From Fusobacterium sp. DD2 (GTDB taxonomy: Bacteria; Fusobacteriota; Fusobacteriia; Fusobacteriales; Fusobacteriaceae), in assembly GCF_018205345.1 (NCBI RefSeq), contig NZ_JADRHM010000011.1:1-45884 (forward strand): a stretch of DNA of 45,884 nucleotides. Direction: 5' to 3'. A program made the translations under genes and the position numbers. Below are positions 13,607 to 33,181 of this stretch, piece by piece. The notes below the pieces were generated by a model, which was not told the DNA's origin, searched no databases, and saw only the letters and a program-made list of their open reading frames with translations. Within the stretch, counting starts at the first letter, position 1. The number at the start of each line of letters is the position of its first letter.

Positions 13607-13622
13607 CAATTTATTTACGAAT

Positions 13623-15669: not shown

Positions 15670-15677
15670 ATATCCCT

Positions 15678-16688: not shown

Positions 16689-16694
16689 TATTTT

Positions 16695-16714
16695 CTCCTT
16701 TAAAAAAAGAGGAG
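16695..16714 (-). promoter_or_regulatory. Hairpin covering the ribosome site of the GT52 gene
   Basis: On the minus strand CTCCTCTTT can pair with AAAGGAG (one bulged C), hiding the Shine-Dalgarno of the following gene. It may also act as a weak terminator after wzz. The stem is short, so this is tentative. Confidence 0.35.
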
Positions 16715-16734
16715 GTTTACTACCTACTCAATCA

Positions 16735-18057
16735 CTATTTAGAATATCTTTTCTTGTAATCTTTTTTGAACTCACTTGCAAATGCCAAGAATATTCCAAA
16801 GCATCCACCTAATACTAAACCAACAACTAGATACATATATAATGGTTTTCCAGTAGTTGTAGTAATAACTGGTGAACTGATTGATATCATGTTTGAGTAA
16901 GTTACACGAGTATATTCATCATTTAACTGATTTACTTCATCTATTATCTTATTAAGTTTATTTACTAAAATATCAAGTTTTTCATTTATAGCTTTCTGCT
17001 GTTCTTCAGTTGGATATGTTAATGTAAGTTTGCTCTCTTCTGTAAGTCTTGATATTGTGCTTTCTTTAGCAATTATCTCTTTATTTAAAGCAAAATACTC
17101 ATCAAGCATTTTTCCATAGTATGCATCACCTTGAGTTACTTTCTTATCAAGCTCTCCAACATTTGCAAGTACAAAGCTCTTTTCACTAGGTTTGTACTCA
17201 TCTATCATTGATTTTAGTACTGCTGCTTGAGATTTAAGTGCATCTCTTTGCATTTTTAGTACTTGAATATCAGATTTAAATCTTAAATCTCTTGTTTTAC
17301 TGTCAAGACTTAACTGATGTACTGTATAGTATGAATAGTAGTCTTGAAGCTCTATTTTTTCAAGACTTGCTATATTTTGCATAATCTTATCAAATGAGAA
17401 TCCTGATTTATTTGATATGAACTTCTTCTCTTCTCTATCTGCAATCAAAACCTTTAAAGCTTCTATCTTATCATCTATAAGCTGATAAACAACTGGATAA
17501 TCATAATCTTTCTTTATGCTTATAGGATCAATTACATAATTAGGTCTATATTTATTTAAAAAACTCTCAAGTGCATCATTAGCTAATGCTCCAACTACCT
17601 TAGTGTTTTCTTTCGAATTTATCTGGAAGTCTATAGGAGTATACTCATACTTTTCTCCTCTGTTAGCTGCATCTTTTATTCTCTTTTGAATATAATCTGG
17701 TACCATCCATACCAACTGATTATTCTTTACAAACTCTTTAAAATCTTTACTTTTTATCTGATCTTTATACTCTTCATATACTGATTGAAATGCCTCTAAT
17801 GGCAATATAGAATCTGATGTAAGAATTCCACCATCAGGTGTTAATCCTTTTTCTCTTCCTGGATAGTCTAAAGTCAGTACTGCTGTAGTTACAGCTTTAC
17901 TTTTATTGTAAAAATATCCCCCAAATAGTGATACAACCATAAATATAATTGTAGTTATTACAATTAACCCCTTATGTTGCATTACTGTTCTTACAAGATC
18001 CAATAGATCTATTTCGTCTTCCTCATAATATTTTCTTTCCTCTAACTGATTATTCAT
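16735..18057 (-). CDS. wzz: Wzz-type chain-length determinant, 440 aa
   Basis: A short cytoplasmic tail (EIDLLDLVRTVMQHKG) leads to a first membrane helix at about residues 31-52. A large periplasmic domain with coiled-coil content (about 180-370) follows. The second helix near residue 408 is preceded by TTTGKPLYM, the proline-containing motif of Wzz proteins. It sets the modal length of Wzy-made polymers. No C-terminal kinase domain is present. The ATG at 18057 is chosen because it follows GGAGG; an in-frame start at 18117 would overlap the permease gene and adds residues foreign to the family. It is cotranscribed with the glycan genes that follow. Confidence 0.88.
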   Translation of the reverse strand: MNNQLEERKYYEEDEIDLLDLVRTVMQHKGLIVITTIIFMVVSLFGGYFYNKSKAVTTAVLTLDYPGREKGLTPDGGILTSDSILPLEAFQSVYEEYKDQIKSKDFKEFVKNNQLVWMVPDYIQKRIKDAANRGEKYEYTPIDFQINSKENTKVVGALANDALESFLNKYRPNYVIDPISIKKDYDYPVVYQLIDDKIEALKVLIADREEKKFISNKSGFSFDKIMQNIASLEKIELQDYYSYYTVHQLSLDSKTRDLRFKSDIQVLKMQRDALKSQAAVLKSMIDEYKPSEKSFVLANVGELDKKVTQGDAYYGKMLDEYFALNKEIIAKESTISRLTEESKLTLTYPTEEQQKAINEKLDILVNKLNKIIDEVNQLNDEYTRVTYSNMISISSPVITTTTGKPLYMYLVVGLVLGGCFGIFLAFASEFKKDYKKRYSK

Positions 18058-18094
18058 TCCATCCTCCACTAATAATTTATTCATAAAAATTATA

Positions 18095-19426
18095 CTATTT
18101 AAGCCTATCTTTGTCAATTTTTAAAAGATAAATATAGGCAACTATAATAAAGATTAGGCAGATTCCAAGATAGATAAATGTCATTGGATTTTGCATTCCA
18201 CCTACTATTATCATTAGAGACCCTAATATAGCTATTATAGGGATAATTACTCCTCTTGCTATACTTGGTACCTCTTTTGTAAAATACATCTTTATAACGC
18301 ATATATATAGGATTATATACAAAATATAACTTGCTATTATAGGTATCTCTGACACATCAGAGTTAGGTATCATATTGTATTTTTGTGTCACGTAGTTAAG
18401 TATTATCCATAGAATGGCAAGTACAAATGATATCTTAGCTGAATATTTAGGTACATGGTGACCTGGTGCAATATATCCTACCTTCTCACTCATTGGAAAC
18501 ATATTTCTTATTGCTAGAGAATATGGCATTCTAAGTGAACCTAAAGTAAATCCATTTAAAGTACCAAGAACTGATATAATAATAAAGATTAAAAAGACTT
18601 TTGCTCCTGCATTACCAAATAGCATGGTAACTGCCCTATTTACATGAGCATCTCCAAGCCTTATGATCTCCTGAGGGCCCACTAATATAGATACTCCTAC
18701 AAAATAGAATATATATGCTAAAAGAACAAATATTGGTCCCACTATCAATGCTATTGGAAGATTCTTTTTAGAATCTCTTATTTCATGAGAGATTGAAGTA
18801 GATACTACCCATCCATCATATGAAAATGCAATAGGTGCAAGTGCTGCAAGCCATGAAAAACTTCCATGTGCAGTAGCTGAACTTTGGATAAATTTAGGAT
18901 CTCCATATATAAATCCTGCAGTAGATAGTACTGCAAGTAATAGTACCTTTGATATAGTAGAGAAGTTCTGGAAAAATCCTCCCATAACTGCTGAAAAATA
19001 GTTCATTGCAAAGCATACTAAAAATGCTATTGTCCCTATTATTGCCATATTTTCAAATGATGCTTCCCATCCAAATAGCATACACATATATACTCCAGCT
19101 ACCCATGATACTACTGCTATAAGGGAAGGATAATAGATAAATACCTGGAACCATCCAAAACAACCTGCTGTCTTTCTTCCTACATACTCATCTGCATAAG
19201 TAATTAATCCTCCAGCTTTAGTAGTCTTAGAGGCCAGTACTGCAATAGTTAAAGATCCAAATATTATCCCAACTGCTGCAAGGCAAAATAGTGCCACTCC
19301 CTTTATAATACTTCCATTTGTATACACAAGGATATTATCACTTTTAAAGAATATCCCTGAACCGATAACTATTCCAACTATCATTGTAATAGCTGTAAAT
19401 AGCCCATACTCTTTTTCATTTTTCAT
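18095..19426 (-). CDS. APC-family amino acid permease, 443 aa
   Basis: Twelve hydrophobic segments and the N-terminal motif MIVGIVIGSGIFF mark the amino acid-polyamine-organocation superfamily. The pattern is closest to LAT-like exchangers such as the serine/threonine exchanger SteT (FSYDGWVVSTSISHEI, then NLPIAL). It would import or exchange an amino acid. It is the first gene of the permease-wzz-GT52-wzx-cytidylyltransferase group and lies 37 bases before wzz. A metabolic link to the glycan genes is not evident. Substrate cannot be read from sequence. Confidence 0.88.
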   Translation of the reverse strand: MKNEKEYGLFTAITMIVGIVIGSGIFFKSDNILVYTNGSIIKGVALFCLAAVGIIFGSLTIAVLASKTTKAGGLITYADEYVGRKTAGCFGWFQVFIYYPSLIAVVSWVAGVYMCMLFGWEASFENMAIIGTIAFLVCFAMNYFSAVMGGFFQNFSTISKVLLLAVLSTAGFIYGDPKFIQSSATAHGSFSWLAALAPIAFSYDGWVVSTSISHEIRDSKKNLPIALIVGPIFVLLAYIFYFVGVSILVGPQEIIRLGDAHVNRAVTMLFGNAGAKVFLIFIIISVLGTLNGFTLGSLRMPYSLAIRNMFPMSEKVGYIAPGHHVPKYSAKISFVLAILWIILNYVTQKYNMIPNSDVSEIPIIASYILYIILYICVIKMYFTKEVPSIARGVIIPIIAILGSLMIIVGGMQNPMTFIYLGICLIFIIVAYIYLLKIDKDRLK

Positions 19427-19504: not shown

Positions 19505-19538
19505 AAAGAGGCACAGAAAAAATTCTGTGCTCTCCTCT
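19505..19538 (-). terminator. Rho-independent terminator after the helix-turn-helix gene
   Basis: GCACAGAA, a 4-base A loop and TTCTGTGC form a perfect 8-bp stem (19511-19530). Read on the minus strand it is followed by CCTCTTTTATATTTTTC. It isolates the small regulator gene from the permease operon. Confidence 0.7.
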
Positions 19539-20057: not shown

Positions 20058-21389
20058 TTAATCTTTATAAAATTTTTCTATAACTTTACTAATTTCAAAT
20101 GAAACTTTTCTATCAACACAATTATTAAAACTTTTTCCAGTATTAATATATCTTAAAAAAGAAACTAATTGAAACCTTATTCCTTCTCCATCTAATTTAT
20201 AAAAATATCTCTTATTATCCAAAGGATTCTCATATCTTAATTCAAAATAATCAGTTTTCCACCAAGGAGCTGGTACATAAATATAACCTTTTGTTCCTGA
20301 AATTACTAAATTTCCTTCTGATTTAATTCCTCGTCCTACTTTAAAAGACGCTACAGCATCTCTGTATTTGAAATTTGCCTTTGTAAATAAATCAAATTTA
20401 CTACCCTCTGAAATAAATTGACTATACAAATCTACCTGTTCATAATCAGTACCCAAAATATCAAAAATAGGTAACATTGCAGTTGGACCCCATGAAGTAA
20501 TACTATTCCAAATATTCGATGATTTTAAATCTACTTTTTCTAAATCTAATAAACTTGTACATGTTGTATCAACTGATACTACTTTACCTATACGTCCACT
20601 TTTTGCAAGTAAAATTAGACGATTATATGCCATTGAATACGCTGTTTTTATCGCCTCCATAAGAACTAATTTTTTTTTGTCAGCAAGTTCAAACAACTCC
20701 TTTGTTTCTTCTAAAGTCAATGAAATTGGTGATTCACATAGTACATGTTTTCCTTTTAATAAAGCTTTCTTTATCTCTTGATAATGCGAAGATGGATGTG
20801 AAATGATATACACTGCATCACAAGTATCTAGAAATGTATCATAATCTTTTGTTATAACTTTAATATCTTTTTGTAATTCCTGCATTATTTCTAAATTGTT
20901 TGTACATAAAGATTTAACTTTTGCTCCATTAACATATAAAAATTCATCACAATATTTTTTTAAAATTCTGCTTTCACTATTTCCTACAAGTCCTATACTT
21001 AGTAATTGTTGTTCTGATCTTAATTTTGATGATGAAATTCCCTTAGTTCTTTCAAGATACTGAACTTTACAATATTCATTTAAATAATCAAAATGTCCTT
21101 TCCAATCAGAACCAACAGTAAAAATATCTACGCCATATCTTTTAATATCATCAATTTTTTGCCCTTCATACTCTTCTATAATAATCATGTCAGCTAATCC
21201 AGTAGCCTTTACGTTTGCAACTCTTTCCATTAAAGATTCTTGAACATTTATTTTTCCTCTCCCACGATCAAAATCATCTGAAGTTACTCCAACAATTAAA
21301 TAATCTCCAAGTTTTTTAGCTCTTTCAAGTAATTTTATATGTCCATAATGTAACAAATCATATGTCCCATAAGTTATAACTTTAGTCAT
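20058..21389 (-). CDS. Fused TagD-like cytidylyltransferase and Gfo/Idh-type oxidoreductase, 443 aa
   Basis: Residues 1-130 are a glycerol-3-phosphate cytidylyltransferase-like domain: YGTYDLLHYGHIKLL has the HxGH nucleotide site, and RTKGISSSKLR is the closing motif. Such domains make CDP-alditols or CDP-amino alcohols. From about 131 a Gfo/Idh/MocA dehydrogenase follows (IGLVGNSES binding loop; dimer domain from about 255). The conserved EKP motif of that family, whose lysine is normally catalytic, reads ESP here (LCESPISL). The fusion suggests that reduction or oxidation and CMP activation occur on one substrate. It is the last gene of the long operon, 13 bases after the class V aminotransferase. 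The product may be a CDP-linked amino alditol used by the LicD proteins; the substrate is unknown. Confidence 0.82.
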   Translation of the reverse strand: MTKVITYGTYDLLHYGHIKLLERAKKLGDYLIVGVTSDDFDRGRGKINVQESLMERVANVKATGLADMIIIEEYEGQKIDDIKRYGVDIFTVGSDWKGHFDYLNEYCKVQYLERTKGISSSKLRSEQQLLSIGLVGNSESRILKKYCDEFLYVNGAKVKSLCTNNLEIMQELQKDIKVITKDYDTFLDTCDAVYIISHPSSHYQEIKKALLKGKHVLCESPISLTLEETKELFELADKKKLVLMEAIKTAYSMAYNRLILLAKSGRIGKVVSVDTTCTSLLDLEKVDLKSSNIWNSITSWGPTAMLPIFDILGTDYEQVDLYSQFISEGSKFDLFTKANFKYRDAVASFKVGRGIKSEGNLVISGTKGYIYVPAPWWKTDYFELRYENPLDNKRYFYKLDGEGIRFQLVSFLRYINTGKSFNNCVDRKVSFEISKVIEKFYKD

Positions 21390-21402
21390 GCAATTCTCCT
21401 TT

Positions 21403-22476
21403 TTAAATTATTCCTCGATTTTGTAAGTCTTTAAATACTTCAAATAATCTATCATAATCTTTTATAGATAGGTCTCCTATATGACCAACTCTAAATATTT
21501 TGTCTTTTAGCTCTCCTCCATTGGGACATATCCAAATTCCATATTCATCTTTAAGTATTTCAAAGATATCACTCGCCTTTGCTGTTGTTGGGTGTAAAGA
21601 TGTTACTGCATTAGACATAGATTCTGACACAAATTCAAATGGAAATGCCTGGATTTTTTGTCTAAAATACTTTGCAAGAGCTTCCACTTTCTTTATTTCG
21701 TTTTCAACTCCACCTTGAAGTTTAATCTCTCTCAAACGTCCATTTATTTGTAGTAATATTCCTACTGCTGGTGTAAATGGTGTTTGTCCTCTTTCACCAT
21801 TTTTTAAAGCACTTTTTAAATCAAAATAAAAACTTTTTACTTTACTTTTTTCTATTCTCTCTAATGCCCTTGTTGACAAAACAATTATAGATATTCCCGG
21901 AGGGCAAGCAAGAGCTTTTTGAGATCCTGTTATCATTATATCTACCCCCAATTTAGACATGTTAAATTCATCTGCTAAAAAAGAGGAAATAGAATCTACA
22001 ATTAAAAATAGATTGTTTCTTTTACAAAATTCACTAATCATCTCAATATCATAATATACACCTGTTGAAGTTTCATGAAGATTCACTAAAAATGCTGTAT
22101 ACCCTTTATGTTCAAATTTTTTTAAATCATTATAGACTAATTTTTTACCAGTTTCCAATTTTATTTCATCATATGGAATTTCATGTAATTTTAAAATATC
22201 TATAAAACGCTGTCCAAAGCTTCCTCCATTTATTACCAATACTTTATCTTTATCACTTAATGTATTTATAATTGATGCCTCCATTGCCCCCGTTCCAGAA
22301 GCAGTCATAAATACCGCTCTTGAGTTCTTAGGAGCCCTTGAAAATTCTAACATTAGTCTTTCATTTTCTTTCATAATTTCTGAAAATTCTGCAGTTCTAA
22401 AATATGGTACTTGTTCTGATCCTATTTTTCTAACAATATTATTTGATTGTACTGGTCCTACTGTCAAATTAAGCAT
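21403..22476 (-). CDS. Class V aminotransferase (AGT/PhnW-like), 357 aa
   Basis: This is a PLP enzyme of the alanine-glyoxylate, serine-pyruvate and 2-aminoethylphosphonate transaminase group. It begins with the typical LTVGPVQ, has the cofactor loop ASGTGAMEA near 60, [12 protein letters not shown] near 164 with the PLP aspartate, and the Schiff-base lysine in TGSQKAL near 187. Length and domain order are normal. Between two cytidylyltransferase genes it probably aminates a small keto compound before or after activation. PhnW-like action is possible, but no phosphoenolpyruvate mutase is visible in the window, so a phosphonate product is not supported. The start follows AAAGGAGAA. Confidence 0.85.
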
Positions 22477-22499
22477 TTTTATATTCTCCTTTTATCAAA

Positions 22500-23216
22500 C
22501 TATAATCCAAATACATCTATATTTCTTTTTGCATCTAAAATTGCCTTAAATATATAAAAATCTATCGGTGTTGTTATTTTTATATTTTCGCTTGGTCCTT
22601 CAACTATATTTAAATTATTTCCATAGTAGTCCATTAAAGAAGCTGAATCTATGAACTCTTTCTTTTCTAATTTTGCCTTCTCATGACACTTTAAAATATC
22701 TCGCAAATAAAACGACTGAGGTGCTCTTGCTAAAAAACATTCATTCCGAGATAATATTTTTTTTACTTTATCATCTTTTATATTTACAACTGTTTCAACA
22801 GCTGGAGCTACTGTTATTGAATTTCCTTTAGTCTCCACCATAACAATATTATCATCTATAGTTTTTTGTAATATTAATGGTCTCACACCATCATGTATCA
22901 GTACTATATCCTTTTCCGAAATAGATTCTTTTTTTGCGCTCTGTAATGCATTATAAATTGACTCTTGACCTGTATTTCCACCTTTTACTATGCTTACTAC
23001 TTTAGTTAAATTAAATTTTTTTATTAACTCCTTTAAATATTCTATTTTTTCTTCTAAACAACTAATAATAATTTTATCAATTTTTTCATTATTTTGGAAT
23101 AATTCAAGAGTATAAATAATAATTTCCTTGTCATATAATCTTAAAAATTGTTTTGGTGTTCCATTAGTTTTCATTCTCTTTCCAACACCGCCTGCAAAAA
23201 TAACCGCCATATTCAT
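22500..23216 (-). CDS. IspD/TarI-like cytidylyltransferase, 238 aa
   Basis: The fold is that of 2-C-methylerythritol-4-phosphate and ribitol-5-phosphate cytidylyltransferases: CTP loop FAGGVGKRM then KQFL (residues 6-24), GGNTGQESIYNAL near 79, VLIHDGVRPLI near 104 and GPSENIKITTPID near 209. The surface-glycan context argues for a TarI/Bcs1-like role, making a CDP-alditol phosphate, rather than isoprenoid synthesis. The ribitol partner enzyme (TarJ or its SDR equivalent) is not beside it; an extended NAD epimerase and the class V aminotransferase are. Two different CDP-making domains in one operon are unusual. It may serve the LicD-type transferases. Confidence 0.82.
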   Translation of the reverse strand: MNMAVIFAGGVGKRMKTNGTPKQFLRLYDKEIIIYTLELFQNNEKIDKIIISCLEEKIEYLKELIKKFNLTKVVSIVKGGNTGQESIYNALQSAKKESISEKDIVLIHDGVRPLILQKTIDDNIVMVETKGNSITVAPAVETVVNIKDDKVKKILSRNECFLARAPQSFYLRDILKCHEKAKLEKKEFIDSASLMDYYGNNLNIVEGPSENIKITTPIDFYIFKAILDAKRNIDVFGL

Positions 23217-23237
23217 AATAATTTAACTCCTTTTTAT

Positions 23238-24287
23238 TTAATTAAAACTCTTAACTGTATTTTCGATTCCCTCTTTTAATGAAATTTTCGGGCTCCAACC
23301 TAAAGAATTTAATTTTTTATTATTTAAACCAACTCTTTTATAATTTGTATATAAATTATTAGAAGAATGTTGAGGAATGCACTTTACTTTTATTTTTTTA
23401 TCTGGAAAAATATCAACACATAAATTTGCCAAATTTTTAATCGAAACTTCTTCCACTTCATTAGATATATTATATACTTCATTTTCTAAACCTTCTAATA
23501 ATATTAGCATCATCGCTTCTATAGCATCAGTAATGTAGCAAAACGATCTTATAGCAGAGCCATCACTTTTTAATATTATGTCTTCATTTTTTACGACATT
23601 TGATATAATATCAGACATTATTCTACCATCATTATCAATATTCATTCCTGGACCATATACATGAGCAATTCTTGCTATTTGATATCTTACCCCATATTGT
23701 AAAAAATAACTCCTACAAATAGTTTCGCTCATTCTTTTGCTTTCAGGATAACACGCCCTATCTTCAAGAGGATTTAATGTTCCCATGTCATTCTCAGCAA
23801 TATAATCTCTATTTTCAATTTTTCCATACACTTCTCTAGTTGAAGCAAAAAATACTCTTGAATTTTTATGTCTTGCAAATTCAAATACATTTAAAGTCCC
23901 TATCGTATTTGCTTTTATTATGCTAAGAGGATCCTTTTTTATAGTTTGTGGATTCGCAGAACTTGCTAAATGAAAAATATAATCAATTGACTCATTTAAA
24001 TCTATTGGAGATGTTATATCCTGAGTAATCAAATGAAAATTCTTCTCATTTAATATATCCTTAAACTGTCTTAATCCCTTCTCTTTATTTCTTACTAATG
24101 CAAAAATATTAATGTTATAGTTTTTTTTCATATTTAATTCCACAAATAAAAAAGTAATATATGTGGCCAACATTCCTGTTGCACCTGTTATCAAAATACT
24201 TTTCCCTTTTAATTTTTCAAAAGCAATATTTGAATTAATTATTTTTTTTAAATCCTCTTTTAATACATGATTTGAAAAAGTTATCAT
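23238..24287 (-). CDS. NAD-dependent epimerase/dehydratase (extended SDR), 349 aa
   Basis: The cofactor loop TGATGMLATYI lies near residue 34, the active-site serine region FFASTREVYG near 146, and the catalytic YPESK near 181. RSFCYITDAIEAM near 246 is the family's substrate-domain motif. It resembles UDP-glucuronate decarboxylase-like and other sugar nucleotide epimerases, but the exact reaction cannot be set. Its ATG overlaps the flippase stop by four bases (ATGA), so the two are translationally coupled. It lies between assembly genes and the CDP-precursor genes and may act on either pathway. Confidence 0.82.
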   Translation of the reverse strand: MITFSNHVLKEDLKKIINSNIAFEKLKGKSILITGATGMLATYITFLFVELNMKKNYNINIFALVRNKEKGLRQFKDILNEKNFHLITQDITSPIDLNESIDYIFHLASSANPQTIKKDPLSIIKANTIGTLNVFEFARHKNSRVFFASTREVYGKIENRDYIAENDMGTLNPLEDRACYPESKRMSETICRSYFLQYGVRYQIARIAHVYGPGMNIDNDGRIMSDIISNVVKNEDIILKSDGSAIRSFCYITDAIEAMMLILLEGLENEVYNISNEVEEVSIKNLANLCVDIFPDKKIKVKCIPQHSSNNLYTNYKRVGLNNKKLNSLGWSPKISLKEGIENTVKSFN

Positions 24288-25756
24288 TTTTCCTCCTTAT
24301 TTTTATTCAAAATCCGAAATATAATTTCTTTATTTTTATAAACTTCTAATAAACTAATTCCTAAAATTAAACTTATTACAAAGTATCTTAAATACAAATA
24401 GTCATACAGTATTACCGCAATGACTGAAAATAATATCATTATCATTGATGTTAATATGAAAAAAAACTTATCATAGAGCTGAGTGTTTATTTCCGCATCA
24501 CATATTTTCATTACAAATATAAAATGTGATATCCCATAAAAAAAATAACTAACCAATGTAGTATATCCAGCTGCTATAAATCCATATTTAGGAATAAATA
24601 TTAAATTTAATATCACATTAAGAGTTGCTGCTATCATCGAGGAAATTAATATGAACTTATTTTTCAAATAAAAAAACTCTACATTGGATACTAAATTATA
24701 AATTAACTGGTAATAAGTACTTACTGCTACTGCTGGAATTATATAAATAACTTGATGATAATTAGGTGGTAAAATAAATTGTATATATTCCGGTGCTAAT
24801 AGCACTAAAAGTATGATACAAAACATCCCCCCTATTAAAATTACATTAGAAGCTGTTTTTACTTTTTTATAATCTTTAATTCTTAAAACTTTAAATAACC
24901 ATGGTCCATAAACTTGCCCAACAGAAGTCACTAATAAATTAGCTATTAAACCAATTGTATAGCCAGCACTATAAATAGCTACATCAGTTCTATTGCATAA
25001 CTTATCTATCATTATTCTATCTGATTGAGTCAAAATTATTTGGGATAAATAATGAGGTATTAAAGGGATTGAAAAAAATAAGGCAAATTTCCAATAAGTT
25101 TTGTTATAAAAGAAATTTTTAATATGTATTCTTTTAGCAAAAGGCAAAACAAAAATTAAAGTTAAAATCGCTTGAACGACAATCCTTGTTATTAATTTAT
25201 TTTTAGAAATACCCATTAAAAATATAGTTACTAAAGGAGTGAATAGATAAACTAATATTGTTATAACTAATATCGAAATATATTTATAGGCAAATCTTTG
25301 CCGTGCATTCCAAAGCAAAACTAAACTACTTCCTAAAATTTCAATAAACATTGAAAGCATAATTAAAAATGGTAAACCAATCACTCTTGTTATAAAGTTA
25401 TTAAATATTAAATATATAAATATAAATATTATGCTTAACGTTATTAATAACCCTTGTATTGCAGAAGTAAACTCATTCTTTTTTTCATTAAATTTATTAA
25501 ATCCAGCATTATAAGTTCCTGAATATAAATTTAAAGTACAAAATATAACAAAAATTGTTTTCCAAGAAATATATAAACTCAATTTCCCATAATCTTCTGG
25601 AGACAGCCATCTTGTAAATAACGGTAATGTTACTAAATTTGCTATTTTTTGTAAAACTATACAAAGAAAATAGCCAATTGATACTTTAAAAGTTATAGGT
25701 AATGCCCTATACTTACTCATAAAACTAGTTATAAAATTTTTGAATGTTTTAACCAT
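24284..25756 (-). CDS. wzx: Polysaccharide flippase (Wzx), 490 aa
   Basis: About 14 hydrophobic segments run through the protein; the segment KIANLVTLPLFTRWLSPEDY near 45 is the classic Wzx N-terminal signature. It would flip the lipid-linked unit made by this operon. I prefer the ATG at 25756, which overlaps the end of the polymerase gene as ATGGTTAA and has GGAGAAG upstream; an ATG six codons earlier lacks a ribosome site. It is very AT-rich, as are its neighbours, unlike the other flippase at 14.4 kb. Confidence 0.88.
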   Translation of the reverse strand: MVKTFKNFITSFMSKYRALPITFKVSIGYFLCIVLQKIANLVTLPLFTRWLSPEDYGKLSLYISWKTIFVIFCTLNLYSGTYNAGFNKFNEKKNEFTSAIQGLLITLSIIFIFIYLIFNNFITRVIGLPFLIMLSMFIEILGSSLVLLWNARQRFAYKYISILVITILVYLFTPLVTIFLMGISKNKLITRIVVQAILTLIFVLPFAKRIHIKNFFYNKTYWKFALFFSIPLIPHYLSQIILTQSDRIMIDKLCNRTDVAIYSAGYTIGLIANLLVTSVGQVYGPWLFKVLRIKDYKKVKTASNVILIGGMFCIILLVLLAPEYIQFILPPNYHQVIYIIPAVAVSTYYQLIYNLVSNVEFFYLKNKFILISSMIAATLNVILNLIFIPKYGFIAAGYTTLVSYFFYGISHFIFVMKICDAEINTQLYDKFFFILTSMIMILFSVIAVILYDYLYLRYFVISLILGISLLEVYKNKEIIFRILNKNKEEK

Positions 25757-26915
25757 AAGTACTTTCTTCTCCATTTTTGAAAATATAGTTTAAATAATAA
25801 GCTAAAATTAAAGTAATATAGAAATAATATGAATTCTTTCTTGATTCAACTAAAAATTCTATAAAATATCCACATATTACTATTCTAGTCATATTCGTTA
25901 TAAATAAATTTTCATTTACCTTAATATTTTTATTAATTAAATATATTATAAATATAAAAATTATAATTAATGCAACTCCACCGATATACAACATATCTAA
26001 AAATTGATTATGTAAGTGATCATAACCCAAAATTCTTTCTATGTATGCCTTTTTTTCAATTCCTACACCAAAAGTAAAATGTTTTTTTATATACTCCACT
26101 CCGCATTCCCAAATATATTCACGCTTCGATAGTGTAACTTTTCGCTTTAAATATCCTTCAATAATAAATCTAAAATGATACTGTATTTTCAAATAAACAA
26201 ACAAATACGAAACAAAAAAATACATTCCCATAACAAAAAAAATGTCTAATATTTTTTTTATTATTTTTTTTTCAATAAAAATCATTAATATACATACAAA
26301 CGAAACTACCAACAATGATGCTGCTGACCAAACTAAATAACTAGATATAATAATAATTGCTATTATGAATTTAGGAATCTTTAGTTTGCCTTTTCCTAAT
26401 AAATTTATTTTTAAAAAATTACAATAAATTGTCAATAAGTATAAGAAGATAAAACCATTTCTGTTCCCTAAAAACCAATTATCGGGTTGAACTGTATAAT
26501 ATAACCCATTGGGAAAAATTACTACAGATATCAAATTTATTATCACTAAAGTATTACATAACATAGTTACTGCTGTCAAAAATTCCATTTTATGGTTTAA
26601 AATACCTTGCTCTGTTATAAGTACAATTGTTAAACTCATTACAAGCTTTATAATTACGGAAAAAATATCTCCTTCAGGATTAAAAATTGTTGAAAGTAAA
26701 ATAATTCCCCAATAAAAAAATATTGAGAAAAAAATTTTGCTCGCTGTCCTTTGTTTTAAAAATATCATAAATGCTATTACAACTGAGAAAATTTGAAAGA
26801 TATCATATATACAATTTATAATAAAAAAATTAGTGTTCTCTATAAAATACTTTGGTTCAAAAAATGGAAATAACAATAACAAATAAAAAATTACCTTTTT
26901 TTTATTTAATAGCAT
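25749..26915 (-). CDS. wzy: O-antigen/capsule polymerase (Wzy-like), 388 aa
   Basis: About ten membrane segments surround one larger outside loop. The LGYDHLHNQFLDMLYIGG stretch near 298 is the conserved histidine-containing part of Wzy/O-antigen ligase proteins. It would join flipped repeat units in the periplasm, with chain length set by Wzz. The start codon overlaps the preceding LicD stop (TAATG). Three homopolymer tracts (T8, T8 or A8, and T9) lie within 60 bases at about 26235-26272 inside the gene and could be slippage-prone. Confidence 0.85.
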   Translation of the reverse strand: MLLNKKKVIFYLLLLFPFFEPKYFIENTNFFIINCIYDIFQIFSVVIAFMIFLKQRTASKIFFSIFFYWGIILLSTIFNPEGDIFSVIIKLVMSLTIVLITEQGILNHKMEFLTAVTMLCNTLVIINLISVVIFPNGLYYTVQPDNWFLGNRNGFIFLYLLTIYCNFLKINLLGKGKLKIPKFIIAIIIISSYLVWSAASLLVVSFVCILMIFIEKKIIKKILDIFFVMGMYFFVSYLFVYLKIQYHFRFIIEGYLKRKVTLSKREYIWECGVEYIKKHFTFGVGIEKKAYIERILGYDHLHNQFLDMLYIGGVALIIIFIFIIYLINKNIKVNENLFITNMTRIVICGYFIEFLVESRKNSYYFYITLILAYYLNYIFKNGEESTYG

Positions 26916-27826
26916 TATTTTTCCCTCAAATCAAATTCCACATAAAAATGTTGTTCACGCTTTTCTATTGGTGGTATTTCCATATAATTTCTATATAATT
27001 TTTTTAAATATTTGTCGTAATTATTTGGAACATATACATTTAAATTTTCAAATAATAAAACCTTTTTGGGAGTCATATCTTCTCTTAATTGTATCTCGCC
27101 TATATATCCTTTCCTTCCAGTAGGAACCGTTACCTCTGAACTCTCAGGATATTTCGAAACTATCCTATCAAATAAATTATTCAATTTTTCGTACTTAATT
27201 AATTCTACTAAACTTCCTATTAATACAACTCTTAAATAGTAATATAACTTTCCTAAAAAAGTCTCTAAAAGAATATCTTTTAAAATTTTATTTTTAAATC
27301 TATTCATTTTTCCTGATGTTGCTAAAAAACTTAAAATTTTACATAAAATTGCATTTCTATATATTAACAATTTTGACTTTGGCAAGTTATCTATCGGAAA
27401 AATTTCTATCGTAATTCCTTGGGGATAAGTAGAACCAAAGTTTGTCAGATTACTAATTTTAATTCCAGGTTTTATTACTTTCGCAAACGTTGATGTATTC
27501 CCTTTCCCATCATTAGGCCTAGAAATAAAATATTTATTTCCATAATCACTCTCTATTTGCTGTAATAATTTTTCATAGTCTTTACGAAAAATCATTAAAT
27601 CAACATCATCATCCCATGGAATGAATCCTTTATGTCTTACTGCTCCTAGTAACGATCCTCCTCCAAGCATAACTTTTATTCCACTTTTATTTGCTGAGTC
27701 TAATACATCAGTTAATACTTTTAAAAGACATTGCTGTAACAATTTCAATTCTTCAGTTGTTAATATATATTGATCACATTTTTTCTTTTTTATTTCATCA
27801 AATATTTTCCTGCTATTTATAAACAT
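26915..27826 (-). CDS. LicD-family phosphotransferase, 303 aa (second copy)
   Basis: The catalytic region MLGGGSLLGAVRHKGFIPWD then DDVDLMIF lies at about residues 52-80. This is the nucleotidyltransferase-fold core of LicD and fukutin-like enzymes, which move a phospho-group (phosphocholine, ribitol phosphate and similar) from a CDP donor to a glycan. The DDD cluster is intact. It is 20 bases downstream of another LicD gene with which it shares the core motif but little else, so each may place a group at a different site. It likely uses the CDP product of the IspD/TagD-type enzymes. Confidence 0.88.
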   Translation of the reverse strand: MFINSRKIFDEIKKKKCDQYILTTEELKLLQQCLLKVLTDVLDSANKSGIKVMLGGGSLLGAVRHKGFIPWDDDVDLMIFRKDYEKLLQQIESDYGNKYFISRPNDGKGNTSTFAKVIKPGIKISNLTNFGSTYPQGITIEIFPIDNLPKSKLLIYRNAILCKILSFLATSGKMNRFKNKILKDILLETFLGKLYYYLRVVLIGSLVELIKYEKLNNLFDRIVSKYPESSEVTVPTGRKGYIGEIQLREDMTPKKVLLFENLNVYVPNNYDKYLKKLYRNYMEIPPIEKREQHFYVEFDLREK

Positions 27827-27846
27827 TACTAGCTCCTTTTAGATAT

Positions 27847-28674
27847 TCATTTTTTTAAAACTTCATCATCTACCCAAATAGAAAAAGAATGCTTTGGAAT
27901 TCTCTCATCTTCAGGTGGTAGTTCCATGAAATTTCCATAATATTTTTCTAAATGCTCTAAGTAATTACTAGGAACCAAACATTTTATTCCTTCAAATTCA
28001 ATTTCTTTTGCATCTTCATAAACACTTTTTAAAACTGTCTCTTTTTTTGCTCCTGCATCAGCATTTGGAGCTACATATTTTGCAACTTTATAATCATATT
28101 TTTTCTGATAACTTAAAATTTTTGCCTTGTATTTATAGACATCATGTAATGAAAAAAATGGTTGCAATATTGGTCCAACTAATTTTGCTATATTTGTATT
28201 TACATATTTAAAATTAGCTCTACATAACGCATGACAACTTCTTAAAAAATACATTTTTTTTAAATATAACCATTGAAAAAATCTGTTTTCTGTAATACCA
28301 TCATAAATGAATATACTTATACCAAGCTTCAATTCCTCTTGTATTCTGTATTGTTTAGAAATCATCTTTGAATTATTATATGCAAATATTGGTATATATC
28401 CCCTGAATTTTTTATCTTCCTCTGGATCTATTAGTATGAACTCATTTTGTTTTTTACTCGCCATTATTTTTTTTAATCTTTCATAATCTGTACGAGTCAT
28501 GCTTACATCTACGTCATCATCCCAAGGAATAAAACCTTTGTGTCTAACTGCTCCTAATAAAGTTCCTCCAAGCAAATATAATCTTATCTTATTTTCATTA
28601 CAAATTTTATACATTGCTTCTAATATTTTTAAATTTATTCTTTGTAACTCTACAAGGTTATCTACTTTTTTCAT
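27847..28674 (-). CDS. LicD-family phosphotransferase, 275 aa (first copy)
   Basis: LLGGTLLGAVRHKGFIPWDD then DVDVS at residues 34-58 is a complete LicD catalytic core; the C-terminus (YYGNFMELPPEDERIPKH) is also typical. It should transfer an alcohol phosphate from a CDP donor to a sugar. It follows the hydroxyacid dehydrogenase and precedes the second LicD gene. With no ordinary glycosyltransferase in the operon, the two LicD enzymes may build phosphodiester links of the polymer itself rather than only decorate it; this is inference. Confidence 0.88.
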   Translation of the reverse strand: MKKVDNLVELQRINLKILEAMYKICNENKIRLYLLGGTLLGAVRHKGFIPWDDDVDVSMTRTDYERLKKIMASKKQNEFILIDPEEDKKFRGYIPIFAYNNSKMISKQYRIQEELKLGISIFIYDGITENRFFQWLYLKKMYFLRSCHALCRANFKYVNTNIAKLVGPILQPFFSLHDVYKYKAKILSYQKKYDYKVAKYVAPNADAGAKKETVLKSVYEDAKEIEFEGIKCLVPSNYLEHLEKYYGNFMELPPEDERIPKHSFSIWVDDEVLKK

Positions 28675-28703: not shown

Positions 28704-29609
28704 TTAATATCCTAATCCCTCTATATTTTCAATAATTCTCTTCTCTAATCGCTCATTATTATCTATTGAAACAAAAGAATTATGTGGCAATATTAATACA
28801 TTATCTAATTCCCATAATTCATTTTCCTCTTCCAATGGTTCTTTTTCAAAAACATCTAACATAACTTGAAGTTCAGATTTTTTCTTCAATAAATCAATTA
28901 ACACTTTTTCATCTATTAATCCACCTCTAGAAACATTTATCAATATACTATCCTCTTTAAGTAAATATAAATTATCCTTATTTATAATATGATGAGTACT
29001 TTCTGTTAGTGGAACTGTCAATATTACTATATCAGCAGTTTTTAAAATCTGATTTAACATTTCTATAGAATATATTTTATCAAAATATAATTTTTCATCT
29101 TTATAAATATCTATCCCTATTATTTTACAATCAAATGATTTAAGACGTTTTGCGCATTCAATTCCTATCTGTCCACAGCCTATAATACAAATTTTTTTAT
29201 CGTTTAACTCTCGTAAATTCCTTTTTTTCTCCCAGCGTTTTTCTTTCATATTTTTTATAAAAAATGGTAAATTTTTATAAAAATATAGTATTCCTAATAC
29301 CACCCATTCACTAATTGGAACATCATATACGTGAGATGCCCTAAATAAAGCTATATTATTATTATTTATATAATTTAACGGCAGACGATCTAATCCTGCA
29401 CTTGTAACCTGTATAAACTTTAAATTTTTAAATTTCCTAATATCATTATACTTAAAAAAATTATTACAAATAACTCCAACTATATCATTAAAATTTGAAT
29501 CTATTTTTTCTAATTCATTTTTAATATAAATAATTTCAAAACCTTTCTTTTCTAATTTTTTTTTTAAATATGTAGTTAATTTAAGTGCTCCTGTTATTAA
29601 TATTTTCAC
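28704..29609 (-). CDS. D-2-hydroxyacid dehydrogenase family protein, 301 aa
   Basis: This NAD(P)-linked enzyme interconverts 2-keto and 2-hydroxy acids. It has the cofactor loop IIGCGQIGIECA near 141, the arginine motif LINVSRGGLID near 224 and the catalytic glutamate and histidine in FEKEPLEEE and ILPHNS (about 255-277), so it looks active. The start chosen is GTG at 29609, with GAGG eight bases upstream; an earlier GTG at 29618 lies inside that ribosome site. Together with the aldolase two genes upstream it may make or use a small keto acid for the glycan. Substrate unknown. Confidence 0.85.
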   Translation of the reverse strand: MKILITGALKLTTYLKKKLEKKGFEIIYIKNELEKIDSNFNDIVGVICNNFFKYNDIRKFKNLKFIQVTSAGLDRLPLNYINNNNIALFRASHVYDVPISEWVVLGILYFYKNLPFFIKNMKEKRWEKKRNLRELNDKKICIIGCGQIGIECAKRLKSFDCKIIGIDIYKDEKLYFDKIYSIEMLNQILKTADIVILTVPLTESTHHIINKDNLYLLKEDSILINVSRGGLIDEKVLIDLLKKKSELQVMLDVFEKEPLEEENELWELDNVLILPHNSFVSIDNNERLEKRIIENIEGLGY

Positions 29610-29619
29610 TGTAATCACC

Positions 29620-30207
29620 TCATTTATTAGTATTATTTTTATTTAAAAGCACTTTATATACTGTCATTATTACTATTTTACAATCTAAAAGAAAAGAAAT
29701 ATGATCTACATACCAAATATTTAATTCAATCCTTGTTGGCCAATCAATCTGTTTTCTCCCATTAACTTGTGCCCAGCCAGTAACTCCTGGTCTTAAGATA
29801 AACATTCTTTTTTGCTCATTAGAATAATCTTCATATTTATGAGGGTGATAAGTTAATGGTGGTCTAAATCCTATAAGTGACATATCACCTTTTAAAATAT
29901 TTATAAACTGAGGCAACTCATCAATACTAGTATTTCTTAATATTTTGCCTACTCTTGTTATTCGTGGATCTCCTTCAAAAGAATACTGTTTAGAACCTTT
30001 ATTTTCTGCTCCTTCGCACATACTTCTAAATTTATATATTTCAAATACTTTGCCATTTTTTCCTAGTCTTTTCTGTTTAAAAAAAACTGGTCCTTTAGAA
30101 TCTATTTTTATAAATAAGGCAACAACTAAAAATAAAGGTAATAAAACTACCAAGCCTAAAAAAGAAACAACTATATCTATTAATCTTTTAAAAAACAACT
30201 TATACAT
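29620..30207 (-). CDS. Initiating phosphoglycosyl transferase (PglC/WcaJ-type), 195 aa
   Basis: An N-terminal membrane helix (residues 8-32) is followed by FFKQKRLGKNGKVFEIYKFR and the catalytic SIDELPQ dyad near 96. RPGVTGWAQVNGR comes near 140. This is the short, monotopic core form that transfers a sugar phosphate from a UDP-sugar to undecaprenyl phosphate and so starts repeat-unit assembly. The CapD-like dehydratase at the start of the operon suggests a modified UDP-HexNAc as its substrate. The gene lies 2 bases after the aldolase gene. Confidence 0.92.
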   Translation of the reverse strand: MYKLFFKRLIDIVVSFLGLVVLLPLFLVVALFIKIDSKGPVFFKQKRLGKNGKVFEIYKFRSMCEGAENKGSKQYSFEGDPRITRVGKILRNTSIDELPQFINILKGDMSLIGFRPPLTYHPHKYEDYSNEQKRMFILRPGVTGWAQVNGRKQIDWPTRIELNIWYVDHISFLLDCKIVIMTVYKVLLNKNNTNK

Positions 30208-30209: not shown

Positions 30210-31028
30210 TTATCTCCTGCTTTTTACTATTTCTTTTATCATGTTCTCTGTTTTTAATTTATTTTCTATGAATCTCTGCTCTTCAATTCCAGAAATTTTT
30301 TTCTCAAATTCTTTCATTTTACAAATATTCGTTGAAAATATTCTTTCTATTTCATCTATATTTTTTAGCATTTCAGTGTTACAAAAACTTCGTGATAAAA
30401 TAACTCTAGTCGAACCTAATCTATAATGTTCTAATATTATATTTTCAGCTGGAAGAAGACCTTCCCCTATCTGAGCAACTCCACCAAACCCATATGGAAT
30501 ATTAAACTTTCTTATTTTATTACAAATCTCTTCCACTATTCCATTAGCAAGAGGTTCAAACATAAATTTCATTCCATAACTTAAATGCAAATCATTTAAT
30601 CCTATATGAATTTCATCGACTGCTTTCATTGAAAGTATTTCTTCTAATATTTCAACACCTTCTTTCGTTTCAAGTAATAAAGTCGTTTTTACTCTTCCAT
30701 CAACATACTCTAAAAATTTTTTAACTTCCTCTAAAGTTTTCCACATTGGCAACATTATTATATCTGCTCCATTTTTAATAACGGCATCTATTTCTCTCTG
30801 TGAATTAATATTTATTGGATTAACCCTTACTAAAAGTTCTGATTTTTTTAAAAAAGGCCTTAGTTTTTTTATGTCTTCAATCGTATGCTTTGATTTTACT
30901 GTGTTCATATTTTTTTGTCTTTCTTCTTTTCCTAGTGTCTCCAGGTCAATCCAAATTCTATCTACACCATATTTTTGTGCAATTAATGCCACTTTAGGAT
31001 CATTAGTAATATACATTGTTTTCAACAT
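30210..31028 (-). CDS. HpcH/HpaI-type aldolase or citrate-lyase-like protein, 272 aa
   Basis: A TIM-barrel of the HpcH/HpaI class: IWIDLETLGKEERQ near 25, the metal-binding glutamate in LLLETKEGVEIL near 117 and the aspartate in IHIGLNDLHLSYG near 140. Known relatives add pyruvate to, or cleave it from, an aldehyde using a divalent metal. The PEP-mutase signature is not seen, so it should not be read as a phosphonate enzyme. It is the second gene of the glycan operon and may supply a keto-acid building block with the hydroxyacid dehydrogenase. Actual reaction unknown. Confidence 0.82.
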   Translation of the reverse strand: MLKTMYITNDPKVALIAQKYGVDRIWIDLETLGKEERQKNMNTVKSKHTIEDIKKLRPFLKKSELLVRVNPININSQREIDAVIKNGADIIMLPMWKTLEEVKKFLEYVDGRVKTTLLLETKEGVEILEEILSMKAVDEIHIGLNDLHLSYGMKFMFEPLANGIVEEICNKIRKFNIPYGFGGVAQIGEGLLPAENIILEHYRLGSTRVILSRSFCNTEMLKNIDEIERIFSTNICKMKEFEKKISGIEEQRFIENKLKTENMIKEIVKSRR

Positions 31029-31042: not shown

Positions 31043-33181
31043 TTATTTATAGTCTGCTTCTCTATATGTAACTATAACTCTTTTCATTAATTCTTTAATT
31101 TTATCTATATCTGGATTGTTGGTTACTTTCATTAGTTCCTCGTAAAATTTTGTAATATCTGTATGTCCTTGTATTTTAGTTATAAATATCTTCTTGTTTT
31201 CTGTTTTAATCGCATTATTTACATCATAAAGAAGTTCTTCATATAGTTTCTCACCTGGTCTAAGTCCTACTATATCTATTCCTACATTAGCATTTGAAAG
31301 CTTTATCATAGATTGTGCCAGCTCATATATTTTTACAGGTTTTCCCATATCGAGAATAAATATCTCTCCACCTTCTCCAATAGATCCAGCTTCTATTACA
31401 AGTTGAGCTGCTTCTGGTATAGTCATAAAGTATCTTGTAATATCTCTATGAGTTACCGTTAAATTTTTACCCTGCTCTATCAAGTTTCTAAATATTGGTA
31501 TAACTGAACCATGACTTCCAAGTACATTTCCAAATCTTACTGCCATAAATTTAGTATTTTTAGATACTCTGTTCATATGCTCTATTACAAGTTCACATGC
31601 TCTTTTGCTTGCTCCCATAAGGTTAGTAGGATTTACTGCCTTGTCAGTAGATATTAGTACCATTCTTTGGACTCCATATTTATCAGCGCACTCTGCTACA
31701 TTTTTAGTTCCAAATATATTATTTTTAATAGCCTCTTCTGGATTATGTTCCATCAGAGGTACATGTTTATGAGCTGCTGCGTGGAACACTATATTTGGTT
31801 TATACTTATTAAATAAAAACTCCAGTTTATCTTTCTCTCTGATATTACATATCTCAGATACATAATTAAGATTTGGATAAAGTCTATGTAGTTCCAATTC
31901 TAAGAAATATATGTCATTTTCATTTACATCTATTGCTACAAGCTGTCTTGGATTAAATTTAGCTATCTGTCTTGCTAACTCTGATCCTATGCTTCCAGCT
32001 CCACCTGTCACAAATATAGTTTTTCCTTCTATTAGGGATCTAATGTTTGAATCATTTATACTTATTTCATCTCTTCCTAAAAGATCTTCTATCTTTACAC
32101 TTCTAAGTTGAGTAGCTAGTTCTCTATCTTCAAGTATTTCAGGTATTCCTGATACTGTTTTAATCTTAATATTCTCAATACCCTGAATTTTTTCTACTAT
32201 ACTTCTAATCTGCTCTCCTTTAATTGATGGAAGAGCAAGTAAAATCTCATCTATCTTTTCATTCTCAATTATCTTCTGTATTGCTTTCATTGTTCCCAGT
32301 ACTTTTACCTTATAAATCTCTGTTCCAACCTTTTTAAAGTCATCATCTATAAACCCTACTATCTTGTATGGAAAAGTAGGACTTGTAAATGATTCTCTTG
32401 CAAGTATTGCTCCTGCCTCTCCAGCTCCATATATAAGGGCTCTTTTTATTACTTTTCCCTTTCTTTTAGTTCCAGCATAGTATCTATTTAATCTAAATAA
32501 ATATCTTCCGAAAAGCTGTAATGAAACAGAGATAAGCATAATCATAAAAAGTATAACCCATGGATATGATCCTGTTTTTTGAAACAAGACAAAAATAGTG
32601 AAAACAGCTGCAGTAAATATATTTAGGCACAACAAATTAAATACGTCTAATATATTCGTATAACTCCAACTCTTTTCACTAATCTTCTTAAATACATACC
32701 CTAATAAGAATATGCTTAAATATATAAAGAAATAATCTTTTTTAATATATTTCATCCAATCTGTATCATACTTCATCATAAACGAAAGTACTATTGCTGC
32801 ACAAACACTTCCTGTATCAAGTAAAAGCTTTACTCCACCTCTTATGTTCACAAGTGATGGATTATATCTCTCCTCTTTATCCATATGTAATTTTTTAAAT
32901 AATCTTTGTATCACTATCTGAAAAATAGAAAAAAGTAAAAAAGCTACAAAAATATACGGATTCTTATAGAAAAAAAGAAATATTAAAAATATCACTGCAT
33001 TTACATACACCGATTTATACTTAGCTTTTTTATTAAAATTCAGATTATCTGTTAAATAGTAAAAGAAAAGAAGAATGGCAAAAAGTCCATACATGGCAGT
33101 ATTAATACTTAAATCTACCATATGAAACACTGTTCTATATACAATAAATAATAAAATTACATAAACTATTTCAAATTTCAT
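31043..33181 (-). CDS. CapD/WbpM-type membrane nucleotide-sugar 4,6-dehydratase, 712 aa
   Basis: After several membrane helices comes a first nucleotide-binding fold (YGAGEAGAILARE near 250) and then the catalytic SDR domain (VTGGAGSIGSELARQI near 390, STDKAVNPTNLMGASKR near 510). Methionine in place of the usual SDR tyrosine is normal for this large family. It should convert UDP-GlcNAc to a 4-keto-6-deoxy sugar. It is longer than the usual 600-650 residues because of about 110 extra N-terminal residues with further membrane helices. It opens the operon: promoter at 33218-33245 and GGGGAG ribosome site. Confidence 0.9.
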   Translation of the reverse strand: MKFEIVYVILLFIVYRTVFHMVDLSINTAMYGLFAILLFFYYLTDNLNFNKKAKYKSVYVNAVIFLIFLFFYKNPYIFVAFLLFSIFQIVIQRLFKKLHMDKEERYNPSLVNIRGGVKLLLDTGSVCAAIVLSFMMKYDTDWMKYIKKDYFFIYLSIFLLGYVFKKISEKSWSYTNILDVFNLLCLNIFTAAVFTIFVLFQKTGSYPWVILFMIMLISVSLQLFGRYLFRLNRYYAGTKRKGKVIKRALIYGAGEAGAILARESFTSPTFPYKIVGFIDDDFKKVGTEIYKVKVLGTMKAIQKIIENEKIDEILLALPSIKGEQIRSIVEKIQGIENIKIKTVSGIPEILEDRELATQLRSVKIEDLLGRDEISINDSNIRSLIEGKTIFVTGGAGSIGSELARQIAKFNPRQLVAIDVNENDIYFLELELHRLYPNLNYVSEICNIREKDKLEFLFNKYKPNIVFHAAAHKHVPLMEHNPEEAIKNNIFGTKNVAECADKYGVQRMVLISTDKAVNPTNLMGASKRACELVIEHMNRVSKNTKFMAVRFGNVLGSHGSVIPIFRNLIEQGKNLTVTHRDITRYFMTIPEAAQLVIEAGSIGEGGEIFILDMGKPVKIYELAQSMIKLSNANVGIDIVGLRPGEKLYEELLYDVNNAIKTENKKIFITKIQGHTDITKFYEELMKVTNNPDIDKIKELMKRVIVTYREADYK

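What the first reader, a model, noticed from the sequence alone, without database searches (positions are those of the whole stretch)
20058..28674. A glycan operon with two CDP-forming enzymes, an aminotransferase and two LicD transferases, but no ordinary glycosyltransferase
The operon has an initiating transferase, a flippase, a polymerase, two LicD proteins, an IspD/TarI-like cytidylyltransferase, a TagD-like domain and a class V aminotransferase. I see no GT2 or GT4 gene. This suggests a teichoic-acid-like polymer in which LicD enzymes form phosphodiester links using a CDP-activated (amino)alditol. Families are established; the product is inference.
Basis: partly seen in the sequence, partly recalled or inferred. 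Interest (0 to 1): 0.75.

Follow-up and report, generated by a model that had tools for sequence, protein, structure and literature searches.

The report
Gut-bacterial operon with two CDP-activated alditols
A bacterial surface-sugar operon appears to build a teichoic-acid-like polymer from a CDP-activated sugar alcohol (a known kind) and a CDP-activated small amino alcohol, and the second part is a widespread aminotransferase-cytidylyltransferase gene pair of gut microbes for which I found no description.

Summary
A tight 12-gene minus-strand operon (33181 to 20058, wider than the stated span) encodes an initiating sugar transferase, flippase, polymerase, two LicDs and two cytidylyltransferases, with no GT2 or GT4 by Pfam. 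The genome has GT2/GT4 genes on other contigs, and a GT52 lies 3.4 kb downstream.

Two modules emerge. (1) IspD-like plus extended SDR matches the published CDP-6-glucitol/CDP-mannitol pairs. The SDR keeps the cytosine, NADP and catalytic residues of C. jejuni HS5.17, and a separate stronger IspD match exists elsewhere. (2) Class V aminotransferase plus a TagD-Gfo/Idh fusion is a conserved cassette. In 80 outside loci the slot beside the fusion holds this aminotransferase (~53) or an unrelated HisC-like one (20), exchanged about 16 times on the tree. Fusions paired with aminotransferases have lost the NAD motif; a sister clade keeps it and lacks them. The same aminotransferase is also paired with a bare TagD (Bacteroides) or a MobA-like transferase (F. 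vincentii). This genome has no PEP mutase or choline kinase match.

Best reading: dihydroxyacetone phosphate to serinol phosphate to CDP-serinol, transferred by LicD. The CDP-aminoalcohol logic is well supported; the exact substrate is inferred, and no chemistry was tested.

The parts
31043..33181 (-). Membrane-anchored UDP-HexNAc 4,6-dehydratase (FlaA1/CapD/PseB superfamily), first gene of operon
   Evidence: Polysacc_synt_2 2e-114; PseB 201 bits, below equivalog cut-off
30210..31028 (-). HpcH/HpaI-type aldolase family protein; role unknown
   Evidence: PF03328 2e-13; next to the same dehydratase and initiating transferase in two other genomes of the family
29620..30207 (-). Initiating polyprenyl-phosphate sugar-1-phosphate transferase
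   Evidence: Bac_transf 1e-69
28704..29618 (-). D-2-hydroxyacid dehydrogenase; role unknown
   Evidence: PF02826 5e-52
27847..28674 (-). LicD phosphotransferase 1
   Evidence: PF04991 7e-39; motif GGTLLGAVRHKGFIPWDDD
26915..27826 (-). LicD phosphotransferase 2
   Evidence: PF04991 8e-43; motif GGSLLGAVRHKGFIPWDDD; the only two LicD matches in the genome are these
25749..26915 (-). Wzy/O-antigen polymerase-like
   Evidence: PF04932 1e-11
24284..25774 (-). Wzx/MOP flippase
   Evidence: PF01943 4e-21
23238..24287 (-). Extended SDR, proposed CDP-ketose reductase (CDP-hexitol synthase), with N-terminal extension
   Evidence: PF01370 8e-43; aligns to PDB 8v4h including the N-terminal helix region; keeps R56,K60,E140,R164,Y167,K171,R208,D212,R233
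22500..23216 (-). IspD/TarI-type cytidylyltransferase, proposed ketose-phosphate cytidylyltransferase
   Evidence: PF01128 9e-47; NF001183 182.6 bits over cut-off 166
21403..22476 (-). Class V aminotransferase, proposed to aminate DHAP to serinol phosphate
   Evidence: PF00266 3e-21; closest solved relative 3f0h over full length, E 7e-150; conserved cassette partner
20058..21389 (-). TagD-type cytidylyltransferase (residues 1-127) fused to a Gfo/Idh-like domain (about 130-443) lacking the NAD glycine motif and the EKP lysine
   Evidence: PF01467 2e-18 and PF01408 1e-16; motif comparison and tree; AF2 pLDDT 87, Gfo/Idh fold
19511..19530 (-). Hairpin at the end of the operon (terminator-like)
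   Evidence: consensus scan; 3 found vs 2.4 in shuffles, so weak

Best explanation
The operon builds a Wzx/Wzy-assembled surface polysaccharide whose repeat carries two phosphodiester-linked alditols. Proposed sequence: (1) the dehydratase and Bac_transf make and load the first sugar phosphate on undecaprenyl phosphate. (2) The IspD-like enzyme joins CTP to a ketose phosphate (most likely fructose-6-P) and the extended SDR reduces it with NADPH to a CDP-hexitol (glucitol or mannitol). (3) The class V aminotransferase aminates dihydroxyacetone phosphate to serinol phosphate (2-amino-2-deoxyglycerol-P), and the TagD domain of the fusion cytidylylates it to CDP-serinol. (4) The two LicD proteins transfer hexitol-P and serinol-P. 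(5) Wzx flips and Wzy polymerises. Shown here: gene content, conserved pairing of aminotransferase with cytidylyltransferase, loss of the NAD and lysine motifs in that clade, and active-site residues of the SDR. Inferred: both substrates, the order of steps, LicD assignments, and the polymer.
For: Module 1: IspD (PF01128) next to an extended SDR (PF01370) is the published signature of CDP-6-glucitol/CDP-mannitol pairs (PMC10918830). The SDR keeps the NADP-phosphate, cytosine (D212), diphosphate and catalytic residues. A separate IspD match exists elsewhere. The paper cites F. nucleatum LPS with mannitol phosphate. Module 2: the aminotransferase lies beside the fusion in about 53 of 80 outside loci, and a non-homologous HisC-like aminotransferase takes that slot in 20. 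The two types exchange 16 times over 76 tips (shuffles 14-22). Of 23 genomes whose fusion lacks an adjacent class V enzyme, 3 have one elsewhere. In 297 genomes of one family, 11/11 with the aminotransferase also carry the fusion within 2.4 kb (30 carry the fusion; hypergeometric 1.7e-12, relatedness ignored). The aminotransferase is also paired with bare TagD plus a Glyphos_transf protein (L111), or with LicD plus a MobA-like transferase (L109). LicD or Glyphos_transf occur in 57/80 loci. Serinol-P from DHAP by an aminotransferase is known: C. jejuni Cj1437 and RtxA.
Against: No enzyme was assayed. The fusion scores below the TagD equivalog cut-off (114 vs 165 bits) and differs from B. subtilis TagD at K44->R and R63->T (TagD residues from memory). 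The SDR differs from HS5.17 around the sugar (M139R, T195A, Q196H) and its best PDB score is UDP-glucuronate decarboxylase. The role of the Gfo-like domain is unexplained. Whether Cj1437 is a HisC-like protein I could not verify. The HpcH aldolase and hydroxyacid dehydrogenase are not accounted for. 23 of 80 loci show neither LicD nor Glyphos_transf in the DNA held, though several are short contigs.
Confidence: 0.5

Rival explanations
1. The aminotransferase cassette makes a different CDP-amino alcohol: CDP-ethanolamine from phosphoglycolaldehyde, 3-amino-1,2-propanediol phosphate from glyceraldehyde-3-P, or a C4 amino-alditol. The logic (aminate a carbonyl phosphate, cytidylylate, LicD transfer) is the same but the product differs.
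For: The aminotransferase's closest named families act on aldehydes such as phosphonoacetaldehyde and glyoxylate (PhnW/AepZ 170 bits, BhcA 171 bits, both far below cut-offs). F. vincentii pairs it with a MobA-like transferase, the family that handles phosphocholine/AEP (PMC6697681).
Against: Replacement by HisC-like enzymes, whose substrates are acetol phosphates (established family knowledge), pairing with TagD, and Glyphos_transf neighbours point to a glycerol-like C3 ketone.
Confidence: 0.27
2. Amination happens after cytidylylation: the TagD domain makes CDP-glycerol or CDP-dihydroxyacetone, the Gfo/Idh domain oxidises or holds it, and the aminotransferase aminates the CDP-ketone to CDP-serinol.
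For: Gfo/Idh fusion, and the parallel with cytidylylate-first, reduce-later CDP-fructose chemistry (PMC10918830). The sister clade has an intact NAD motif and often a short-chain dehydrogenase next to it.
Against: The aminotransferase-linked clade has lost the GxG motif and the EKP lysine, and B. finegoldii does without the Gfo domain.
Confidence: 0.13
3. The cassette is a 2-aminoethylphosphonate (AEP) tailoring pathway like PntC.
For: Class V aminotransferase next to a cytidylyltransferase and LicD, as in phosphonate tailoring; PntC of T. denticola contains such an aminotransferase domain (PMC6697681).
Against: No PEP mutase in this genome (99.95% complete), none in the F. vincentii record, and only 1 of 18 cassette genomes/records has one over the cut-off.
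Confidence: 0.02
4. Module 1 makes a CDP-pentitol (ribitol), or the SDR is a separate UDP-sugar enzyme (4-keto reductase or UDP-glucuronate decarboxylase) unrelated to the IspD-like gene.
For: NCBIfam calls the IspD-like protein ribitol-5-P cytidylyltransferase; the SDR's best PDB score is UXS1; the operon has a 4,6-dehydratase but no other obvious 4-keto reductase.
Against: The SDR has the NADP-type R/K residues and the cytosine Asp, where UXS1 has other residues by the same alignments, and the HS5.17-type N-terminal extension. No TarJ-type dehydrogenase was found in the operon.
Confidence: 0.25
5. The operon lacks GTs because sugars are added in trans by GTs encoded elsewhere; LicD proteins only decorate an ordinary polysaccharide.
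For: The genome has 4 GT2 and 6 GT4 matches on other contigs and a GT52 nearby.
Against: Wzy-type operons usually carry their own transferases (general knowledge), and this one carries two CDP donors and two LicD.
Confidence: 0.3

Closest known systems
CDP-6-D-glucitol pathway of C. jejuni HS:5 (HS5.18/HS5.17) and CDP-mannitol pathway of S. pneumoniae 35A (Mnp1/Mnp2)
   Same: Adjacent IspD-type and extended SDR genes; NADP, cytosine and catalytic residues; N-terminal helical extension
   Different: About 30% identity over the SDR; sugar-pocket residues differ, so which hexitol is open
Lic phosphocholine tailoring (LicABCD)
   Same: CDP-activated amino alcohol used by LicD
   Different: No choline kinase match in the genome; the amine is proposed to be made de novo by transamination and activated by TagD rather than LicC
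Pnt phosphonate tailoring (PntC)
   Same: Class V aminotransferase paired with a cytidylyltransferase
   Different: No PEP mutase; TagD family rather than MobA-like here
C. jejuni serinol amidation (Cj1437/Cj1438/Cj1435)
   Same: DHAP transamination to serinol phosphate for a surface glycan (proposed here, shown there)
   Different: There serinol-P is joined by an amide bond and dephosphorylated; here a CDP donor and phosphodiester are proposed
Wall teichoic acid synthesis (TagD/TagF, TarI/TarJ)
   Same: CDP-alditol donors; TagD- and TarI-type enzymes
   Different: Initiating transferase and Wzx/Wzy assembly, LicD instead of TagF/TarL

Membership tests
CDP-hexitol synthase pair | PF01128 next to PF01370 | tested here: met
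   22500-24287, gap 21 nt
CDP-hexitol synthase pair | SDR with N-terminal helix, NADP-phosphate Arg/Lys, cytosine Asp, YxxxK | tested here: met
   alignment from residue 5; R66,K70,D226,Y180,K184 of the window protein
CDP-hexitol synthase pair | Same sugar-contact residues as HS5.17 | tested here: not met
   M139R, T195A, Q196H; E140 kept. This bears on which alditol, not on the fold or cofactor
CDP-hexitol synthase pair | Activity on fructose-6-P/CDP-fructose | not testable with these tools
   needs assay
TagD (glycerol-3-P cytidylyltransferase equivalog) | Score over TIGR01518 cut-off | tested here: not met
   114.3 vs 165.4 bits
AepZ/PhnW AEP aminotransferase | Score over TIGR03301/TIGR02326 cut-off | tested here: not met
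   170.5 vs 360.8; 120 vs 400.8
Phosphonate (Pnt) tailoring | PEP mutase in genome | tested here: not met
   no PF13714 match in a 99.95% complete genome
Lic phosphocholine pathway | Choline kinase (LicA) | tested here: not met
   no PF01633 match in genome; PF01636 not searched
Gfo/Idh/MocA oxidoreductase | Glycine-rich NAD motif and EKP lysine | tested here: not met
   window and its clade lack GxG and have ESP in most members; sister clade keeps GxGR. Fold is Gfo/Idh
Teichoic acid machinery | TagF/TarL polymerase (Glyphos_transf) | tested here: not met
   no PF04464 match among the operon proteins
LicD | PF04991 over cut-off with GGxLLGAVRHKGFIPWDDD motif | tested here: met
   both proteins

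The most novel reading that the evidence does not exclude
A third route beside Lic and Pnt by which microbes activate a small amino alcohol with CTP for surface glycans: an aminotransferase (either of two unrelated families) makes an amino-glycerol phosphate de novo, a TagD-type enzyme (usually carrying a Gfo/Idh-like domain that has lost its NAD site) activates it, and LicD or TagF-like enzymes transfer it. It is spread over gut Firmicutes, Bacteroidales, Fusobacteria, Treponema and Methanobrevibacter.
Probability: 0.55. Interest if true: 0.75.

Novelty: new variant of a known kind. Interest (0 to 1): 0.6.

Why it matters
If right, hundreds of gut bacteria and archaea (at least 541 relatives of the fusion matched one scan) put a positively charged amino-alcohol phosphate on their surface by a route that current annotation names only as 'aminotransferase' and 'cytidyltransferase'. 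Such zwitterionic groups, like phosphocholine, typically bear on host recognition and phage binding (general knowledge). The prediction is directly testable with two or three purified enzymes. [quoted passage not shown]

Tried and rejected
AEP/phosphonate pathway (no PEP mutase). Phosphocholine pathway (no choline kinase match). IspD copy serving isoprenoid synthesis (separate IspD match on C68). Hidden GT in the operon (no Pfam match at E<=0.1). Aminotransferase acting with an active Gfo/Idh domain as in oxidise-then-aminate pathways: disfavoured by motif loss and by the Bacteroides pair without the domain. Literature searches found no description of the aminotransferase-TagD-Gfo cassette in the held library. 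Searches for Fusobacterium O-chain papers gave only citations, not the structures. The original Cj1437 paper is not held. PDB hits for the SDR alone are ambiguous (UXS1 scores best), so residues were used instead.
Full report
WHAT IS THERE. The window is one whole contig of a 2.36 Mb genome (99.95% complete). Its phylum set holds 98 genomes and is probably Fusobacteriota, to judge by size and gene content; this was not proven. The finding lies in a 12-gene minus-strand operon from 33181 to 20058 with gaps of -26 to +29 nt. In order: 4,6-dehydratase, HpcH aldolase family, initiating transferase, D-2-hydroxyacid dehydrogenase, LicD, LicD, Wzy, Wzx, extended SDR, IspD-like, class V aminotransferase, TagD-Gfo/Idh fusion. 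The only two LicD matches in the genome are these. No operon protein matches a GT family at E<=0.1. GT2 and GT4 matches lie on other contigs, and a GT52 gene with a PseF-like cytidylyltransferase, a second flippase and a Wzz lies just downstream.

MODULE 1, CDP-HEXITOL. In C. jejuni HS:5 such a pair was shown to make CDP-6-fructose and reduce it to CDP-6-glucitol; in S. pneumoniae 35A a similar pair makes CDP-mannitol; about 400 such pairs are predicted, and F. nucleatum LPS is cited as holding mannitol phosphate (PMC10918830). The window SDR aligns with the solved enzyme (8v4h) from residue 5, covering the unusual N-terminal helix. It is 30% identical and keeps R56, K60, E140, R164, Y167, K171, R208, D212 and R233, with T227 as Ser. 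It differs at M139, T195 and Q196 next to the sugar, so the alditol may differ. UDP-glucuronate decarboxylase scores better overall, but by the same alignments it lacks the NADP-type and cytosine-specific residues. The genome has another, stronger IspD match on contig 68, so this copy need not serve isoprenoid synthesis.

MODULE 2, AMINOTRANSFERASE AND TagD-Gfo. One scan of 84,980 species genomes with the fusion gave at least 541 relatives; the best 80 loci were kept. They span Lachnospiraceae, Oscillospiraceae, Bacteroidales, Erysipelotrichaceae, Treponema and Methanobrevibacter, by record titles. The class V aminotransferase lies beside the fusion in about 53 of the 80. In 20 others the slot is held by a HisC-like class I/II aminotransferase, an unrelated family. 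On a tree of 94 fusions the two aminotransferase types change places 16 times over 76 tips, close to shuffled labels (mean 19.4, range 14-22). Of 23 genomes whose fusion lacks an adjacent class V enzyme, only 3 have one elsewhere. In 297 genomes of one family, 30 carry the fusion and 11 the aminotransferase; all 11 carry both within 2.4 kb (hypergeometric 1.7e-12 ignoring relatedness).

THE Gfo DOMAIN. Fusions with aminotransferases lack the GxG of the NAD site and in most cases have ESP for EKP. Eleven fusions in a separate clade keep GxGR and E(K/T/I)P and have no adjacent aminotransferase found. Of their downstream neighbours, the three scanned are short-chain dehydrogenases by Pfam and three more read alike by eye, while two Fusobacterium relatives have TagF-like transferases nearby. 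The AlphaFold model (pLDDT 87) is a full Gfo/Idh fold. So in this clade the domain looks like a former oxidoreductase. In Bacteroides finegoldii the aminotransferase is followed by a bare TagD-like protein and preceded by a Glyphos_transf protein; in F. vincentii SB055 it sits between LicD and a MobA-like nucleotidyltransferase. The domain is therefore dispensable for the pairing.

WHICH SUBSTRATE. LicD or Glyphos_transf genes occur in 57 of 80 loci, GNAT acetyltransferases in 13 and a methyltransferase in 5, as expected for a transferable amine. This genome has no PEP mutase or choline kinase match, so AEP and phosphocholine by known routes are disfavoured. DHAP transamination to serinol phosphate is known in C. 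jejuni (Cj1437) and in RtxA. HisC enzymes act on an acetol phosphate, the same shape as DHAP, and TagD acts on glycerol-3-phosphate, the same shape as serinol phosphate (established family knowledge). Serinol is therefore the best guess at about 0.55-0.6 among amino alcohols; ethanolamine or aminopropanediol remain open.

POLYMER. With one initiating transferase, two LicD, Wzx and Wzy and no GT in the operon, the simplest repeat is one amino-deoxy sugar with hexitol phosphate and serinol phosphate, polymerised by Wzy (inference). GTs acting in trans cannot be excluded. HpcH and D-2-hydroxyacid dehydrogenase travel with the dehydratase and initiating transferase in another genome of the family and may make an acid substituent.

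LIMITS. Everything rests on sequence and neighbourhood. E-values and counts ignore relatedness except where a tree was used. The 80 loci are the best-scoring ones, so they favour the aminotransferase clade. Record titles of metagenome bins can be wrong.

Noticed in passing
window 38997-40475: UDP-glucose/GDP-mannose dehydrogenase ORF carries an N-terminal HTH_3 (Xre-type) domain in the same reading frame.
   Followed up: no
L104:13107-15158 (genome G029): HpcH aldolase relative fused to a LysA-like PLP decarboxylase, with a branched-chain aminotransferase two genes away; in G055 (L105) HpcH goes with a D-2-hydroxyacid dehydrogenase as in the window. Suggests HpcH makes a 2-oxo acid that is either reduced or aminated and decarboxylated.
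   Followed up: partly
window 12776-19426: Downstream glycan genes: GT52/polysialyltransferase-like, PseF-like cytidylyltransferase, second flippase, Wzz and an amino acid permease; probably a second nonulosonate-related module.
   Followed up: partly
L109 (NZ_CP084075.1): A 2.1 Mb Fusobacterium vincentii SB055 record is filed as a plasmid in PLSDB and carries almost no annotation; it looks like a chromosome.
   Followed up: no
window 351-10766: A 3471-aa autotransporter.
   Followed up: no
L088-L097: Sister clade of TagD-Gfo fusions with intact NAD motif, in the loci read followed by a short-chain dehydrogenase-type gene: possibly a CDP-alditol pathway of its own.
   Followed up: partly
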